DNA of 46,711 bases from Treponema sp. (GTDB taxonomy: Bacteria > Spirochaetota > Spirochaetia > Treponematales > Breznakiellaceae). Shown in pieces: positions 17,137 through 45,236 of the stretch. The stretch is taken from positions 1 to 46,711 of the forward strand of contig JAISMJ010000035.1 of NCBI GenBank assembly GCA_031276815.1. Direction: 5' to 3'. The position numbers were made by a program, and so were the translations under genes. A model generated the notes under the pieces. That model was given only the letters and a program-made list of their open reading frames with translations, was not told the DNA's origin and ran no database searches. Numbering within the stretch: position 1 is the first letter of the stretch; each line of letters opens with the position of its first letter.

Positions 17137-17793
17137 TTAGACGGCGCCGGCGTAATCGTTTCTCATTTGTATATATTCTCCATAATTTGCGCGATGCCAT
17201 TCTATCATCTTTTTTACTATTCTTGCCGGATTTCCCGCTATTATAATATTTTCTTGCTCATATCGTTTTGTAACGACCGCATTAGCTCCTATTACACTAT
17301 TATTGCCTATATGTACGCCTTTTAATAGTGCCGCATTCATACCAACCCACACATGGTCTCCTATCACTATGTCTTTATTCCTATTTATTATTTTTTGCTT
17401 CTTTTTATCTAGTATGATATGCGCGTCTGAAATTGCCATTGTTATTCCAAACGAAAACATACAATCATTCCCTATTCGTATATTTCCTTCATCAGGGCTT
17501 ACAAACATGTGTAATCCATTACACGTAAAATGCGAACCTATCGCTACAGTACTTACCGGATACGGTCGTATACTTCCCCACATCTTATGTATTGTTACAT
17601 TATCTATTGATGAATGCGCTCCTATTGTTACTCTCAAGTTATCTCTGGTTTCTATATGATTATTCCAAAACCTAAACGGTTCATAAATCTCAATACTGTT
17701 GTTTTCTCCATGAAAATGTATAGTAAGACCATCTATGCGGTCTACTTCCGTTTTTGTTCCGTCTGTTTTTACAACAATGATGCTATTACTCAT
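17137..17793 (-). CDS. Hexapeptide-repeat acyltransferase (likely O-acetyltransferase for a surface glycan)
   Basis: A 218-residue protein with left-handed beta-helix repeats in two blocks (for example VAIGSHFTCNGL, IRIGNDCMFSFG, IVIGDHVWVGMNAALLKGVHIGNNSVIGANAVVTK). It has the likely catalytic His in ISDAHII and the terminal AGNPARIVKK typical of LacA/CysE-like sugar acetyltransferases. The acceptor is unknown. Base use is much more AT-rich than ffh next door, a sign of transfer. The start overlaps by eight bases the end of an upstream leader frame that carries a 15-C tract, so its translation may be switched by slippage. Confidence 0.82.
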   Translation of the reverse strand: MSNSIIVVKTDGTKTEVDRIDGLTIHFHGENNSIEIYEPFRFWNNHIETRDNLRVTIGAHSSIDNVTIHKMWGSIRPYPVSTVAIGSHFTCNGLHMFVSPDEGNIRIGNDCMFSFGITMAISDAHIILDKKKQKIINRNKDIVIGDHVWVGMNAALLKGVHIGNNSVIGANAVVTKRYEQENIIIAGNPARIVKKMIEWHRANYGEYIQMRNDYAGAV

Positions 17794-18021
17794 AGGACCC
17801 CTCTCTTCTTGGTTTCATAAGATTTTGATAGCATTGCGGAGTATTCCCCAGATATTCCCTAGTCTTTGCGGACTTTTCCAGAAAAACCTCATGTTCGAAG
17901 ATATATAGAGCGGGCTTACCGGTCTTTTTGTTTATATATTGATTATTACGCTTTGCGGTATAAAAGGTTAATTCAAAAATAACGGGGGGGGGGGGGGGAT
18001 CAACTTATACGGCTCTTTCAT
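17786..18021 (-). CDS. Poly-C leader ORF upstream of acyltransferase (out of frame at 15 C)
   Basis: On the minus strand AAAAGGAG (18039-18032) precedes an ATG at 18021 by ten bases. Translation begins MKEPYKLI and enters 15 consecutive C (17998-17984). With 15 C the frame ends quickly at TAA 17970-17968. With one C more or two fewer it reads PPPPPV (five Pro) or the equivalent with fewer Pro, then about 64 further codons (IFELTFYTAKRNNQYINKK and onward) and stops at 17788-17786, overlapping the acyltransferase ATG by eight bases. With 14 or 17 C it stops at a TGA just after the tract. It may be a short phase-variable protein or a translational switch. The tail resembles no family I know. Confidence 0.6.
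17984..17998 (-). repeat. 15-base homopolymer (C on the coding strand)
   Basis: Fifteen consecutive G on the plus strand. Homopolymers of this length are prone to slipped-strand mispairing. It lies inside the leader ORF and within the transcript, not between promoter elements. Confidence 0.9.
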
Positions 18022-18118
18022 TTTTTATACGCTCCTTTTGAAAACTTAAAAATCTCGCCGCTCTACCATAGCAACTCTTGTTAACGGCTACCATGGCAAC
18101 GCTACGAATTTCACTAGA

Positions 18119-18239: not shown

Positions 18240-18250
18240 AGATAATCCTT

Positions 18251-18664
18251 TCTTTAGGCTATGGCTTTAATTTTTTAGGCTACGGCGTTTTTTCTTTACG
18301 CCATGGCTTTAACTTTTTAGGCTATGGCGTTTTTTCTTTAGGCCATGGCTTTAATTCTTTAGGCTACGGCGTTTTTTCTTTACGCCATGGCTTTAACTTT
18401 TTAGGCTATGGCGTTTTTTCTTTAGGCTACGGCTTTAATTCTTTAGGCTATGGCGTTTTTTCTTTAGGCTACGGCTTTAATTCTTTAGGCTATGGCGTTT
18501 TTTCTTTAGGCTACGGCGTTTTTTCTTTACGCCATGGCTTTAACTTTTTAGGCTATGGCGTTTTTTCTTTACGCCATGGCTTTAATTCTTTAGGCTATGG
18601 CGTTTTTTCTTTACGCCATGGCTTTAATTCTTTAAGCCATGGCGTTTTTTCTTTAGGCTATGGC
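18251..18664. repeat. Tandem array, 21-bp period, about 20 units
   Basis: Units read like TCTTTAGGCTATGGCTTTAA plus one base, alternating with TCTTTACGCCATGGCTTTAA-type and TTTTTAGGCTATGGCGTTTT-type variants. The period is 21 bp throughout. Every frame on both strands that I checked meets stops, so it is non-coding. It separates the XRE regulator from the truncated ORF. Confidence 0.9.
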
Positions 18665-38823: not shown

Positions 38824-39003
38824 TTCGACAGTATAGCCCAGATTTCTGAACATGCGTCGTAGGAAGTCGACAACGCGCCGAAGATTGTCGACAGCGTATC
38901 GAAGGTTGTCGACAACGTGCCGTAGAATGTCGACAGCGCGCCATAGATTGTCGACAGCGTACCACAGATTGTCGACAACGCGCCGTAGATTGTCGACAGC
39001 TTT
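38824..39003. repeat. Tandem array, 21-bp period, with GTCGAC in each unit
   Basis: GTCGAC occurs at 38866, 38887, 38908, 38929, 38950, 38971 and 38992, exactly 21 bases apart, with two degenerate units before. On the minus strand a frame reads as heptads with the core VDNL (for example RRVVDNL, WYAVDNL, RYAVDNL). No ribosome-binding site or known protein supports translation. Confidence 0.9.
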
Positions 39004-39456: not shown

Positions 39457-39948
39457 TTATTCGCCGTCCGCTATCGCGTTCCGTTTCAAGCTGTTTATGG
39501 CTACCTGCGTCATGTTATCACAGAGTTCATTGTAGGCGTTTCCTGAATGTCCCCGCACCCACTCCCATTGTATGGGGAGTTTGCTGACCGAGGCGGCGAG
39601 CGCGTCTAATTTTTGCCATAGGTCTTTGTTTTTCACGGGCTTTCTTTCTGAATTACGCCACCCGTTCTTTTTCCACAGGACTATCCATTCGCTGATGCCT
39701 TTCTGAACATATTGAGAATCCGTGTACACCGAAATGTCAGGCGGCCGTTTGCCTAACGTGGGGAGCAGCTCTTGTATGGCTTCCATAGCGTTTGTTACCG
39801 CAGTCAATTCCATACGATTATTGGTAGTAAACATATCCGCGCCCCATTTCTCGGCGAGGACTTTTTTAGTATTCATAATTATATATGCCCAACCGCCTGG
39901 TCCTGGATTGCCGTGGCATCCGCCGTCTGTGTAAATTGCTATTTTCAT
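39457..39948 (-). CDS. rnhA: Ribonuclease HI
   Basis: A 163-residue enzyme that cuts the RNA strand of RNA-DNA hybrids. The catalytic carboxylates are visible: Asp in IYTDGGCHGNPGPGG, Glu in NNRMELTAV, Asp in VYTDSQYVQ and the last Asp in NELCDNM, preceded by the His loop VRGHSGN. Length is normal. No Shine-Dalgarno is present. TTGACA-17-CATACT ends nine bases before the ATG. A second, truncated copy lies at 44331. Confidence 0.95.
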   Translation of the reverse strand: MKIAIYTDGGCHGNPGPGGWAYIIMNTKKVLAEKWGADMFTTNNRMELTAVTNAMEAIQELLPTLGKRPPDISVYTDSQYVQKGISEWIVLWKKNGWRNSERKPVKNKDLWQKLDALAASVSKLPIQWEWVRGHSGNAYNELCDNMTQVAINSLKRNAIADGE

Positions 39949-41755: not shown

Positions 41756-43831
41756 TTAGAGGGTTTTAAGGGAGCTGATCTGCTGAATGACTAATTCTCC
41801 GGATACTAAGAGTGAGCGGGAGGTTTCTTCGATCCTCCCAATCAGGGCGTTTATTTCATTCAGCGCGTCTAACACCTTGCTTCCTTCGGAATTTTGGACG
41901 TTCATAGTGCTTTGTATAGACAGTTCTTCGCTTTTTACCTTGTCAATAAGCAAAACCATTTCTTCAAATTGTTCGCGGGCATAGGCAGCTGATTCTTTTG
42001 ATGCGGCAATAAGACTTTTGATGCTTTGCAGACTGCCGCTTATTTTCACCGCCTGCTTTCCGGAATTGTCCGCCAGTTTCCTGATTGCTCCGGCAACGAC
42101 CGCAAAGCCTTTGCCCTGTTCGCTGGCGTGAGCCGCCTCAATCGCCGCGTTCATACCGAGAATATTGGTCTCATCCGCAATATCTCCGATTATCTTAGAT
42201 GCATCAATAAGGACATTAGATTGATTTTCCACATTGGTTATAACTTCCTCAATCTTATAAAGCCGCTCTTTCCCCTCTGTTGAGGATGCGTTCAGTTTCA
42301 ATACGGATTCCGCGTTATGATTCAGATTCTCATACATAGCCCGGATATTTTCTACAATCCCTTCTATGGTTTGTGAGGAACGTAACACATAGGCTGCGGT
42401 TTCACTGATCTGGCTGGTTAAGGTCACAAGACCATCTTTATTTTTATGCATTTCTTCCAACGTACGCTCGTAGACCTGGTTAAGCAGATGCTTGACGTTT
42501 TCATTGGCTTGCAGCTCTTTTTCAATCTCTATATAATGCCGGCAATTCTCAGGCTTGTTAAGATTGTTAATAATAGCCACCGCCATCTGTTCACAGCTTT
42601 TATACCCGCACGCTCCGCAGTTGAGAAGGTCGCTCTCTTTCGTTTTATGCATAGTGGTAAATGTCGCGGTAATCGCCGCCTGACTTGGAAAAATCATTCT
42701 TTTTCTAAAAATATCCGACCTGTCTACATAGGAACGCCGGTATAAATCAGCATCCCAATACCGGTCAAGAATCTTTTCAAGTATATTCTGCCTGAGGAGC
42801 TTTTGCCTCACGGTAGGCTGATACCGTTTTCGCATCTCGCTATTCCGCTGTTCCGTAAAACGCTCCAAATCATCGAAATGCTTGTTTTGATTCAGCGTGG
42901 CAGGACCCCCATTACATCCCATAGCGCAGTTGAGACAGTCAATGAGTCTATAGACCGAGCGGTTGTCTTTTTTAATGGAATCCGCCAGATAGGCAAGGTA
43001 CCGGTATATCTCATGGGTCCCCTCGATCTTACGGGTATAGCTGCCGGCCTCGCTATCATATCGCTGCAATGTCCGCATAAGTCCACCGGGACTTGAAAAC
43101 AGCACCGCCCGTTCCGCCGGAGGATTATCATAGTCCACGTCGGGATAGGCGTTTATGGTCTTGCGGGACTCATCAAGGTACTGATGTATTGATCTAAACC
43201 CCACATTGTAATCGCCTATGCCCACCACGTCGAATTCGCGGCGTTTGGAATAACAGGGGCTTATAGCGGCAATTTGGTGATGCTTATACTGAGGGTAGAA
43301 GCGCTTGATCATCTTCATCGTATGGACCATAGGGCTGTCTACCGGCGCAAGGTAAGGGAGCAGAGCAGGACGGTACATTTCGATGAAAGACACCAGCGTA
43401 GGGCAGGGCTGCGCTATGACTATAGGGGGATTTACTGCTTTCATATACGCGAGGTAGGATTTGATCGTAAGCTCAGCGCCGAAACTTACGTCAAATACGG
43501 CTTTTATCCCCAGCGATTTAAGAAATCCATTCACCTTCAGGTAGGCGCCTTCGAAACTTGCGGCAACGGCGGGGGCCACGATGGCGATGATGTCCGCGCC
43601 TTTTTGCAGGTCTTCCATAAACACATGAAAATCGTCAATGCCGATACGGGCGCCGTGGGTACAGGCATTGATACATTCCCCGCAGCCGATACATAATTCA
43701 GGATGATGATCTATAACGTCTCCAGAGCCATTATTGCACATTTTGACAGGACACACCATGATGCACCGGTGGCAATTAACGCATTTCTCTTTTATCACTT
43801 TGATAATCGAACGCAAAACATTTTTTTCCAT
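41756..43831 (-). CDS. Soluble [FeFe]-hydrogenase-type sensor fused to a methyl-accepting chemotaxis signalling domain
   Basis: A 691-residue cytoplasmic protein without membrane segments. The order is two [4Fe-4S] motifs (CVNCHRCIMVC, CIGCGECINAC), then a hydrogenase large-subunit H-cluster domain with cysteines in AQPCPTL, ISPCYSKRREF and CLNCAMGCNGGP. A Fes-type four-Cys motif (CGACGYKSC ... ENC) and a long coiled coil follow, with the chemoreceptor tip ETNILGMNAAIEAAHASEQG then KGFAVVAGAIRKLA. All H-cluster ligands appear present, but the position before the first ligand, normally the proton-relay Cys of TSCCP, is Pro, as expected for a sensory rather than catalytic hydrogenase. Hydrogen- or redox-taxis is the likely role. 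The ATG at 43831 has AGGAG seven bases upstream. Confidence 0.88.
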   Translation of the reverse strand: MEKNVLRSIIKVIKEKCVNCHRCIMVCPVKMCNNGSGDVIDHHPELCIGCGECINACTHGARIGIDDFHVFMEDLQKGADIIAIVAPAVAASFEGAYLKVNGFLKSLGIKAVFDVSFGAELTIKSYLAYMKAVNPPIVIAQPCPTLVSFIEMYRPALLPYLAPVDSPMVHTMKMIKRFYPQYKHHQIAAISPCYSKRREFDVVGIGDYNVGFRSIHQYLDESRKTINAYPDVDYDNPPAERAVLFSSPGGLMRTLQRYDSEAGSYTRKIEGTHEIYRYLAYLADSIKKDNRSVYRLIDCLNCAMGCNGGPATLNQNKHFDDLERFTEQRNSEMRKRYQPTVRQKLLRQNILEKILDRYWDADLYRRSYVDRSDIFRKRMIFPSQAAITATFTTMHKTKESDLLNCGACGYKSCEQMAVAIINNLNKPENCRHYIEIEKELQANENVKHLLNQVYERTLEEMHKNKDGLVTLTSQISETAAYVLRSSQTIEGIVENIRAMYENLNHNAESVLKLNASSTEGKERLYKIEEVITNVENQSNVLIDASKIIGDIADETNILGMNAAIEAAHASEQGKGFAVVAGAIRKLADNSGKQAVKISGSLQSIKSLIAASKESAAYAREQFEEMVLLIDKVKSEELSIQSTMNVQNSEGSKVLDALNEINALIGRIEETSRSLLVSGELVIQQISSLKTL

Positions 43832-43841
43832 ATTCATGCTC

Positions 43842-44008
43842 CTAATTATTTGAACCATAAAATGTTATATTCCGGCGATACGGATATATAACATTGACTA
43901 TAAAAAATAAGAGACTTGGCAATCTCCTAAAATTAAAGAGATGTGTAGTTTGTATGGGGGGGGGGGGGGGATAACGATCATATCTAACCGACCAGTTGAT
44001 TTGTTCAC
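43842..44008 (-). CDS. Poly-C leader ORF upstream of the hydrogenase-type sensor (out of frame at 15 C)
   Basis: AAAAGGAGCGTAGAAAAA precedes a GTG at 44008, the same module as at 18021. Translation begins VNKSTGRLDMIVI and enters 15 C (43970-43956). With 15 C it reads PPPPPYKLHISLILGDCQVS and stops at TAG 43900-43898. With 16 or 13 C the frame runs on for about 37 more codons (IQTTHLFNFRRLPSLLFFIV and onward) and ends at TAG 43844-43842, inside the AGGAG of the sensor gene. With 14 C it stops soon at TAA. The design suggests a slippage switch on translation of the downstream gene. Confidence 0.6.
43956..43970 (-). repeat. 15-base homopolymer (C on the coding strand)
   Basis: Fifteen consecutive G on the plus strand, the same length as at 17984-17998, inside the leader ORF of the hydrogenase-type sensor gene. 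Confidence 0.9.
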
Positions 44009-44029
44009 TTTTTCTACGCTCCTTTTAAT

Positions 44030-44059
44030 AGCATAATCCTTCTATAAGTTATGTGTCAA
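44030..44059 (-). promoter_or_regulatory. Promoter of the poly-C leader and sensor gene
   Basis: Minus-strand TTGACA (44059-44054), 18-bp spacer, TATGCT (44035-44030). Transcription would begin just before the AAAAGGAG of the leader ORF. Confidence 0.55.
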
Positions 44060-44330: not shown

Positions 44331-44612
44331 CTACCGCTTACATACAATGCTGTCTATAGCTACCTGCATCATTTTATCACAGATTTCGTTATAGGTGTTT
44401 CCCGAATGTCCCGGCACCCACTCCCAGTTTATAGGGAGCTTACTTACCAAGTCGGCGAGCGCGTCTAATTTTTGCCATAGATCTTTGTTTTTCACAGGCT
44501 TTCTTTCCGAATTACGCCAGCCGTTCTTTTTCCACAGGAATATCCATTCGCTGATACCTTTTTGAAGGTATTGAGAATCCGTATACACCGAAATATCATG
44601 CGACCGTTTGCT
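44331..44612 (-). pseudogene. Truncated second copy of rnhA
   Basis: Close relative of the complete rnhA at 39457 (VYTDSQYLQKGISEWIFLWK, then KNGWRNSERKPVKNKDLW, identical or nearly so). It begins only about residue 65, after which the sequence runs straight into the IS5 remnant at 44613. Two of the catalytic acids (first Asp and Glu) are lost. Its C-terminal end differs, showing independent drift. The IS appears to have removed the 5' part. Confidence 0.85.
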
Positions 44613-45080
44613 TAGGGCGTGTCGTCAAAGACAAGGAAGATAGATCTGAGATAGAGGCGGCAAGAAAGGAATCAGAGCGTTTAGCATACCGAGTGGCAAT
44701 ACTTCTCCACTGTTTAAGCCACCGAAATACATTCTCAATAAGATGGCATTCCTTATACAGCTCTTTGTCATAGTACCGCTGCTCCGTCCGACTACACTTG
44801 GACGGGATAACTAGTTCAGTGCCTCTTGAACGGGCGCTGTTTACTATCTCGTTCACATCACACCCGCTATCGGCTAACAAGATCCCTACCGGCACGCCCG
44901 CACCTCAGCTCGCTGTTATGCGTAATCCACCTCCTGCCCTGCCGAAAGAAGGATACGTACTGGCTTGCCCTTCTTTTGTACGCCCTATCGTTTGATTTCC
45001 TCCAACCGCTCCGCATGGACTTTGCTATAAGTGGCATCTATAATATATCCACGTGGTATCCACTTCCCGCTTCTTGAAGG
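44613..45080 (-). pseudogene. IS5-family transposase remnant, C-terminal part
   Basis: Minus-strand pieces in order: YIIDATYSKVHAERL, a frameshift to GGNQTIGRTKEGQ, an in-frame TGA, then VGILLADSGCDVNEIVNSAR, ELVIPSKCSRTEQRYYDKEL and YKECHLIENVFRWLKQWRSI, ending in IATRYAKRSDSFLAA. The YREK-like Glu of the DDE triad is in HLIENVF. The end TAGGGCGTGTCGTCAAAG at the rnhA junction looks like the element's terminal repeat. Not functional. Confidence 0.8.
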
Positions 45081-45131: not shown

Positions 45132-45236
45132 ATGTTTTTACCAGTCTTGCGGGTGTTTAGGAGTGTCTCCCAAATGTTTGGGAGTCTCTCACAGGTGTTC
45201 GTGAGTGTCTCACGGGTGTTTGGGAGATGGTCCATA
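45132..45236. repeat. Tandem array, 21-bp period, five units
   Basis: Units start at 45132, 45153, 45174, 45195 and 45216, for example GTGTTTAGGAGTGTCTCCCA and GTGTTCGTGAGTGTCTCACG. The minus strand reads as heptads (DHLPNTR-, ETLTNTC-, ERLPNIW-like) in an open frame, without a ribosome-binding site. Confidence 0.8.

What the first reader, a model, noticed from the sequence alone, without database searches (positions are those of the whole stretch)
43842..44059. Poly-C leader in front of a hydrogen-sensing chemoreceptor
Seen: promoter, AAAAGGAGCGTA-type ribosome-binding site, GTG, 13 codons, exactly 15 C. The present frame stops 54 bases before the sensor ribosome-binding site; with 16 or 13 C the leader frame ends within the AGGAG of the sensor gene. 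Inference: switching of a chemotaxis or redox sensor by slippage, which would create subpopulations with different responses to hydrogen. Phase variation of a chemoreceptor-type sensor by a translated leader is unusual.
Basis: partly seen in the sequence, partly recalled or inferred. Interest (0 to 1): 0.88.

Follow-up and report, generated by a model that had tools for sequence, protein, structure and literature searches.

The report
Switchable leader before a hydrogen-sensor gene
A gut spirochaete carries a run of 15 identical DNA letters inside a short leader gene in front of a probable hydrogen-sensing chemotaxis receptor, and gain or loss of one letter should decide how far ribosomes travel towards the receptor; the same arrangement recurs in sister species and before other genes, so it looks like a random genetic switch on a sensor rather than a chance repeat.

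Summary
A promoter-like site, SD, GTG, 12 codons and 15 C lie in front of an [FeFe]-hydrogenase-like/MCP gene. At 15 C the leader stops 54 nt before the sensor SD; at 16 or 13 C it stops inside AGGAG.

The tract is not isolated. The genome has 77 C/G tracts of 13-16 nt (52 of 15) and none of 10-12, many within or at the 5' ends of genes. In the same genus, six sensor-gene copies in four genomes (this one included) have a poly-C tract just upstream; a seventh has an interrupted tract. The leader start is readable in five of the six, and in each of those some register ends the leader ORF within -25 to +4 nt of the sensor start. A second leader in this window, and others in this genome and a sister genome, are built alike.

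Best reading: slipped-strand phase variation of a leader cistron that gates the sensor by translational coupling, perhaps with attenuation (two terminator-like hairpins here). The leader-peptide principle is known (S. gallolyticus pil1), as is a variable homopolymer in a chemoreceptor mRNA leader (H. pylori tlpB). New are the combination, the target and the lineage-wide repertoire. Length switching, expression effect and H2 sensing are inferred, not shown.

The parts
44030..44059 (-). sigma-70-like promoter TTGACA-18-TATGCT of the leader/sensor transcript
   Evidence: 10 of 12 consensus matches; number of such sites not above shuffles
44015..44026 (-). leader ribosome-binding site AAAAGGAGCGTA, shared exactly with the second poly-C leader of the window (18028-18039)
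43971..44008 (-). leader ORF before the tract: GTG + 11 further codons + AT (MNKSTGRLDMIV...)
43956..43970 (-). 15-C tract (15 G on the + strand), the proposed slippage site
43933..43935 (-). leader stop TAA reached with 14 or 17 C, just before hairpin 1
43902..43929 (-). terminator-like hairpin 1 (TAGGAGATT GCCA AGTCTCTTA, -9.1 kcal/mol) followed by T6; only two G-C pairs
43898..43900 (-). leader stop TAG reached with 15 C (assembled state), between the two hairpins
43862..43894 (-). hairpin 2 (ATGTTATATATCCG...CGGAATATAACAT, -10.4 kcal/mol; 0 of 300 shuffles of the spacer as stable by the terminator-like criterion used), followed by TTT
43842..43844 (-). leader stop TAG reached with 13 or 16 C, overlapping the sensor SD
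43839..43843 (-). sensor SD AGGAG, 7 nt before ATG 43831
41756..43831 (-). sensor CDS, 691 aa: ferredoxin-type 4Fe-4S sites, Fe_hyd_lg_C, PF04060 FeS, MCPsignal
17984..17998 (-). second 15-C tract, inside a leader ORF starting at ATG 18021 (SD 18039-18028)
17786..18021 (-). second leader ORF; with 13/16 C it is 77-78 aa and ends ATGAGTAA, overlapping the next start by 8 nt; with 15 C it is 17 aa
17137..17793 (-). hexapeptide-repeat acyltransferase downstream of the second leader

Best explanation
A phase-variable leader cistron. The promoter makes one transcript with a short leader ORF and the sensor. DNA polymerase slippage changes the poly-C tract by one base and puts leader ribosomes in one of three registers. 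In the 13/16-C register they translate the whole spacer and terminate inside the sensor SD, so initiation or re-initiation at ATG 43831 is favoured (high). In the other registers they leave 66 or 101 nt upstream and the sensor start must be found without coupling (low); here two hairpins lie in the spacer and may reduce transcription or access further. The target is a cytosolic [FeFe]-hydrogenase/MCP receptor, so subpopulations would differ in a probable H2/redox taxis input. Shown: tract, registers, stop positions, recurrence in the genus, genome-wide tracts, protein domains. Inferred: length switching in cells, coupling, attenuation, H2 as signal.
For: Exact registers. In the genus, six sensor-gene copies in four genomes have a poly-C tract just upstream: this window C15, G153 C15, G151 C14 twice, G119 C15 and C16. 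The leader start is readable in five (the first G151 copy begins 75 nt before its tract at a contig end and was not tested by register). In each of the five some register ends the leader ORF near the sensor ATG: -10, -25, -11, -12, +4; the G119 C16 leader has two such registers (-25 and +4). At assembled lengths three are in the register reaching the sensor (G153, G151 second copy, G119 C16) and two are not (window, G119 C15). By shuffles each case is weak (0.14-0.54); all five together 0.0017 if independent, which they are not. L124, without a tract, has a 47-aa leader ORF ending right at the sensor start. Four other leader loci in this genome end with an 8-nt stop/start overlap in register n=1 (two of them near-copies), and 6 of 33 tracts examined in G119 have leaders ending near a start, the sensor leader among them. 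Genome: 77 tracts of 13-16 nt, none of 10-12; of 45 tract-bearing ORFs of at least 100 aa judged, 23 read through and 22 do not at assembled length. Tracts sit near contig ends more than expected (9 within 141 nt, 1.2 expected), as length heterogeneity would cause, though repeats contribute.
Against: No read or population data on tract length. The sensor has a good SD of its own, so coupling may be dispensable. Leader peptide sequence is poorly conserved and the register that works differs between orthologs. Computed SD accessibility gives no consistent sign of sequestration. In the four other sensor leaders tested the spacer shows no comparable terminator-like hairpin (L146 weak). The coding-selection test on the L086/L091 pair is weak (pN/pS 0.57 in the coupled frame against 1.11 and 0.81). 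Two relatives have interrupted tracts (L148, L123) and two paralogs in this genome have none. Leader candidates within the genomes were picked because they fit.
Confidence: 0.6

Rival explanations
1. Mainly transcription attenuation, as in S. gallolyticus pil1: a short leader lets a terminator hairpin form, a long leader keeps the ribosome on it and transcription continues. Translational coupling would be secondary.
For: Two terminator-like hairpins lie between tract and sensor, hairpin 2 more stable than in any of 300 shuffles, and the three registers stop before hairpin 1, between the two, or past both. L086/L091 leaders hold GC-rich hairpins followed by T-rich stretches. pil1 is an experimental precedent.
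Against: Hairpin 1 has two G-C pairs and hairpin 2 only a short T-run, and the consensus scan does not list either. L150, L147 and L156 have none and L146 only a weak one.
Confidence: 0.17
2. The tract is a hypermutable passenger: length may vary, but the sensor is translated from its own SD regardless of leader register.
For: The sensor has AGGAG at good spacing. A leader ending near the sensor start in some register is not rare in shuffled spacers (0.14-0.54 per case). Leader peptides are poorly conserved; some relatives lack the tract.
Against: Tract just upstream in six copies across four genus genomes despite diverged flanks; the same architecture in other leaders; an untracted leader ORF ending at the start in L124.
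Confidence: 0.15
3. The tract acts through its length or through a G-rich small RNA, as RepG does on the tlpB G-repeat, giving graded control without leader translation.
For: A variable homopolymer in a chemoreceptor mRNA leader is a documented mechanism.
Against: Here the tract lies inside an SD-headed ORF in all five readable leaders, with stops placed at the next start; no small RNA was searched for.
Confidence: 0.04
4. Programmed slippage of RNA polymerase or ribosomes on the C run produces several registers in every cell, so there is no genetic switching.
For: About half of the tract-bearing ORFs judged are out of frame at assembled length.
Against: Slippage is best known on A/T runs (own knowledge); assembled lengths differ among tracts and among orthologous leaders.
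Confidence: 0.04

Closest known systems
Streptococcus gallolyticus pil1/pil3 leader-peptide phase variation (PMC3894217)
   Same: A repeat inside a translated leader; repeat number shifts the leader frame; the short leader stops before a hairpin and the long one passes into it; two subpopulations
   Different: Pentanucleotide GCAGA repeat, strong terminator, pilus operon, Gram-positive, experimentally shown. Here a C homopolymer, weak hairpins, long leader ending in the sensor SD, a sensor target, no experiment
Helicobacter pylori tlpB leader G-repeat with small RNA RepG (PMC8295292)
   Same: Variable homopolymer in the mRNA leader of a chemoreceptor gene
   Different: Untranslated leader, small-RNA target, graded by length; here the tract lies in a predicted ORF and would act by register
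Treponema pallidum polyG/C tracts, including one in mcp1 (PMC10013896)
   Same: Spirochaete, polyG/C length variants between clones, one in a methyl-accepting chemotaxis gene
   Different: That tract changes the C-terminus of Mcp1; 10-11 nt; not a leader
[FeFe]-hydrogenase group C2, chemotactic (putative), of HydDB (PMC5037454)
   Same: Hydrogenase linked to methyl-accepting chemotaxis signalling
   Different: HydDB classification was not run here; H2 sensing is putative there too; nothing there about phase variation

Membership tests
Simple-sequence contingency locus (slipped-strand phase variation) | Long mononucleotide tract beyond chance | tested here: met
   two C15 in the window; 77 tracts of 13-16 nt in the genome, none of 10-12
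Simple-sequence contingency locus (slipped-strand phase variation) | Placed where a one-base change alters a reading frame or expression | tested here: met
   register changes the leader stop from -66 to -10 or -101 (frame shown, effect on expression not)
Simple-sequence contingency locus (slipped-strand phase variation) | Tract-length variation within a population | not testable with these tools
   no reads; only indirect signs: lengths 14-16 among orthologous leaders, excess of tracts at contig ends
Simple-sequence contingency locus (slipped-strand phase variation) | Reversible expression switching | not testable with these tools
   needs cells or reporters
Phase-variable leader-peptide attenuator (pil1 type) | SD-headed leader ORF with the repeat inside | tested here: met
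Phase-variable leader-peptide attenuator (pil1 type) | Terminator hairpin between leader and gene, reached only by the long leader | tested here: inconclusive
   two terminator-like hairpins here, none in three of four other sensor leaders tested
Phase-variable leader-peptide attenuator (pil1 type) | Leader translation raises transcription of the gene | not testable with these tools
   experiment needed
Translational coupling | Upstream stop at or overlapping the downstream start or SD | tested here: met
   -10, -11, -12 and +4 (and a looser -25) at sensor genes in one register; +8 at four other loci
Translational coupling | Downstream start hidden unless the leader is translated | tested here: inconclusive
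   SD accessibility low in L150 and, less clearly, L156 and L146; not in the window; no consistent signal
RepG/tlpB-type control | Repeat lies in untranslated leader | tested here: not met
   tract lies inside a predicted SD-headed ORF (prediction, not measured translation)
[FeFe]-hydrogenase group C2 (chemotactic) | Hydrogenase H-cluster domain joined to MCP signalling domain | tested here: met
[FeFe]-hydrogenase group C2 (chemotactic) | The four H-cluster cysteines kept | tested here: met
   alignment: QPCP, SPC and CAMGC face the CCP, MPC and ACVGGC motifs of a solved hydrogenase (third motif in a low-scoring stretch)
[FeFe]-hydrogenase group C2 (chemotactic) | Signals in response to H2 | not testable with these tools
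   putative also in HydDB

The most novel reading that the evidence does not exclude
A three-position dial instead of an on/off switch: in this species each of the three tract registers parks the leader ribosome at a different place (before hairpin 1, between the hairpins, inside the sensor SD), giving three heritable expression levels of a hydrogen-taxis receptor, in a lineage of gut symbionts that uses poly-C leaders for sensors, lipoproteins and surface-modifying enzymes.
Probability: 0.15. Interest if true: 0.78.

Novelty: new variant of a known kind. Interest (0 to 1): 0.62.

Why it matters
Phase variation is studied mainly in pathogens and mostly changes surface structures. Here a sensory input, probably for hydrogen, seems to be randomised among cells of a gut spirochaete, and C tracts of at least 12 nt occur in 135 of 150 sampled genomes of its family. 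If so, gut symbionts may hedge their response to steep hydrogen gradients, which read-level data from such metagenomes could test directly. It also suggests looking for homopolymer-bearing leader ORFs before sensor genes elsewhere. Ten literature searches in open-access papers found no report of such tracts in termite-gut treponemes or of a phase-variable hydrogenase-type sensor; most subscription papers were not searchable.

Tried and rejected
Chance repeat: rejected (shuffles, 77 genome tracts). Assembly undercounting by one base (most leaders need 16, most tracts read 15): not favoured, because 16 ORFs of at least 100 aa read through at their assembled length in the n=0 register. In-frame fusion of leader and sensor: no register does this in the window. 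Shared mobile cassette carrying SD and tract: the AAAAGGAGCGTA motif occurs three times exactly in the genome, two of them at the window leaders, and copies with up to one mismatch are no clear excess over the reversed control (44 against 32), so dropped. SD sequestration as a general rule: not supported. Fisher's method on the five shuffle fractions gives 0.23, but these are success probabilities of a yes/no outcome, so the plain product 0.0017 was used, with the caveat that orthologs are not independent. Group C3 as the hydrogenase class: wrong, HydDB names C2 as the chemotactic one. Distant orthologs with C17-C21 tracts 312-461 nt upstream (L127, L128, L130, L131) have no leader ending near the sensor start from those tracts and were not counted as support.

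Full report
What is there. The minus strand of 43842-44059 carries TTGACA-18-TATGCT, the SD AAAAGGAGCGTA, GTG at 44008, 12 codons plus AT, and 15 C at 43970-43956. Leader registers end at TAG 43900-43898 (15 C, 66 nt before the sensor ATG and 54 nt before AGGAG), TAG 43844-43842 (13 or 16 C, overlapping AGGAG) or TAA 43935-43933 (14 or 17 C). The sensor start is best read as ATG 43831 (691 aa), since AGGAG stands 7 nt before it. Two 15-nt C tracts in this window exceed all 100 shuffles.

The sensor. Pfam gives Fe_hyd_lg_C (E 4e-28), two ferredoxin-type 4Fe-4S stretches, PF04060 and MCPsignal (1e-19). Alignment to solved hydrogenases places QPCP, SPC and CAMGC at the cysteine motifs of the H-cluster, the last in a low-scoring stretch; the extra cysteine of CCP is replaced by proline. 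HydDB lists hydrogenases linked to methyl-accepting proteins as group C2, 'chemotactic (putative)'; I did not run HydDB. The closest named relatives are spirochaete MAGs, 'Treponema sp.' or 'Spirochaetaceae bacterium', at 57-78% identity. That they come from termite guts is my inference from the style of the record names; the paper I opened does not confirm it. H2 sensing is not shown.

The second leader. At 17998-17984 the window has another 15-C tract after AAAAGGAGCGTA, ATG 18021 and 7 codons plus AT. With 15 C the leader is 17 aa; with 16 C it is 78 aa and ends ATGAGTAA, overlapping by 8 nt the start of a hexapeptide acyltransferase.

The genome. G000 (2.37 Mb, 131 contigs, 80.6% complete) has 79 C/G runs of at least 9: lengths 9 (2), 13 (2), 14 (16), 15 (52), 16 (7), none of 10-12. 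A few share near-identical flanks. Many lie inside or at the 5' end of open frames. Among ORFs of at least 100 aa with an SD-headed start and a tract, 23 read through and 22 are interrupted at assembled length. These frames were chosen mechanically as the longest joinable ones, so the counts are approximate. Examples include a GT92 glycosyltransferase, a nucleotidyltransferase-aminotransferase, a solute-binding protein, an oligopeptide ABC ATPase and a LuxR-type response regulator. In the family, 135 of 150 genomes have at least one tract of 12 C or more, up to 265 in one. Modal lengths are 15 in 30 loci sampled from G119 and 14 in 30 from G052.

Sister species. All 12 genus genomes have matches to the protein, many only to its parts. 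Upstream sequences of the closest copies were read. Six sensor-gene copies in four genomes (this one, G153, G151 with two tandem copies, G119 with two) have a poly-C tract just upstream: C15, C15, C14, C14, C15, C16. Five have a readable leader start. The sixth, the first G151 copy, begins 75 nt before its tract at a contig end and was not tested by register; that copy is also split between frames. In G023 the site reads CCCCCGCCCCC and the leader start lacks an SD; in the named relative L123 it reads CCCCTTCCC. For G154 the contig starts inside the gene.

Register test. Stop ends relative to the sensor ATG for n mod 3 = 0, 1, 2 are: window -66, -10, -101; G153 -25, -131, -63; G151 second copy -45, -109, -11; G119 C15 -91, -113, -12; G119 C16 -25, +4, -108. 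So each of the five has some register ending within -30 to +12, and the G119 C16 leader has two. The register that works differs between copies. At assembled length three are in it and two are not. Dinucleotide shuffles of the spacer give such an outcome with probability 0.305, 0.143, 0.257, 0.273 and 0.541; the product is 0.0017 if independent, which related genes are not. In L124, 74% identical and without a tract, a 47-aa SD-headed leader ORF ends right at the sensor start, so such a leader may exist without the tract.

Other leaders. In G000, L086, L091 (near-copies), L089 and window 17984 have leaders whose n=1 register ends with an 8-nt overlap of the next start; these were found by searching for the pattern. 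In G119, 6 of 33 tracts examined, one of them the sensor leader, have a leader ending near a start; the others include a lipoprotein-like gene and a membrane sensor with what looks like the beginning of a GGDEF domain (by eye). In L086/L091 the leader spacer differs at 23 of 261 positions with one 3-nt indel; pN/pS is 0.57 in the coupled frame against 1.11 and 0.81 in the others, weak support for coding.

Hairpins. The window spacer folds two terminator-like hairpins, TAGGAGATT-GCCA-AGTCTCTTA followed by T6 (-9.1 kcal/mol, two G-C pairs) and ATGTTATATATCCG...CGGAATATAACAT followed by TTT (-10.4; none of 300 shuffles as stable). The three leader stops lie before the first, between them, and past both. 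Of the other sensor leaders, L150, L147 and L156 have none and L146 a weak one. The consensus scan lists neither window hairpin. SD accessibility is no lower than in shuffles for the window, and clearly low only in L150. So a leader ending at the sensor start is the feature common to the orthologs, and attenuation is possible here in addition.

Literature. S. gallolyticus pil1 switches by GCAGA repeats in a leader peptide that controls a terminator, shown by mutants. H. pylori tlpB has a variable G-repeat in its untranslated mRNA leader, read by the small RNA RepG. T. pallidum clones differ in polyG/C tracts, one in mcp1. No held paper that I found reported poly-C leaders in termite-gut treponemes.

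Judgement. The mechanism most likely is slipped-strand variation of a leader cistron that gates the sensor, known in principle and new in this combination. Switching and its effect remain to be measured.

Noticed in passing
17984-17998 and 17137-18021: Second 15-C leader before a hexapeptide acyltransferase, same SD string and same register rule as the sensor leader.
   Followed up: yes
18249-18664: Tandem array, 42-nt period, about 10 copies, upstream of the second leader; a 213-aa leader-frame ORF made of short repeats also occurs in L109.
   Followed up: partly
38854-39000 and 45152-45226: Further short tandem arrays with 21-nt period (6.3 and 3.6 copies).
   Followed up: no
39457-39948 and 44331-44588: Intact RNase H gene and a second RNase H fragment lying next to a transposase-like fragment (44596-44895).
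   Followed up: no
L157 (G000 C9) and L170 (G000 C18): Two paralogs of the hydrogenase/MCP sensor in the same genome, 58% and 44% identical, without a tract in front.
   Followed up: partly
L158/L147 (G151 contig 11): Two tandem copies of the sensor gene, both with a C14 tract upstream; the first copy is split between frames with a stop inside and its leader start lies beyond the contig end or was not identified.
   Followed up: partly
L179 (G119 contig 5): Poly-C leader ending within 1 nt of the start of a membrane sensor whose C-terminus looks like the beginning of a GGDEF domain (by eye).
   Followed up: no
L086 and L091: Near-copy leaders before a lipoprotein-like gene, with GC-rich terminator-like hairpins in the spacer (-10.5 and -23.8 kcal/mol).
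   Followed up: partly
G052 (other genus of the family): About 273 C tracts of at least 11 nt in 2.5 Mb; modal length 14 in the 30 loci sampled.
   Followed up: partly
L127, L128, L130, L131: More distant sensor orthologs have C17-C21 tracts 312-461 nt upstream, on the same strand as the sensor; purpose unclear.
   Followed up: partly
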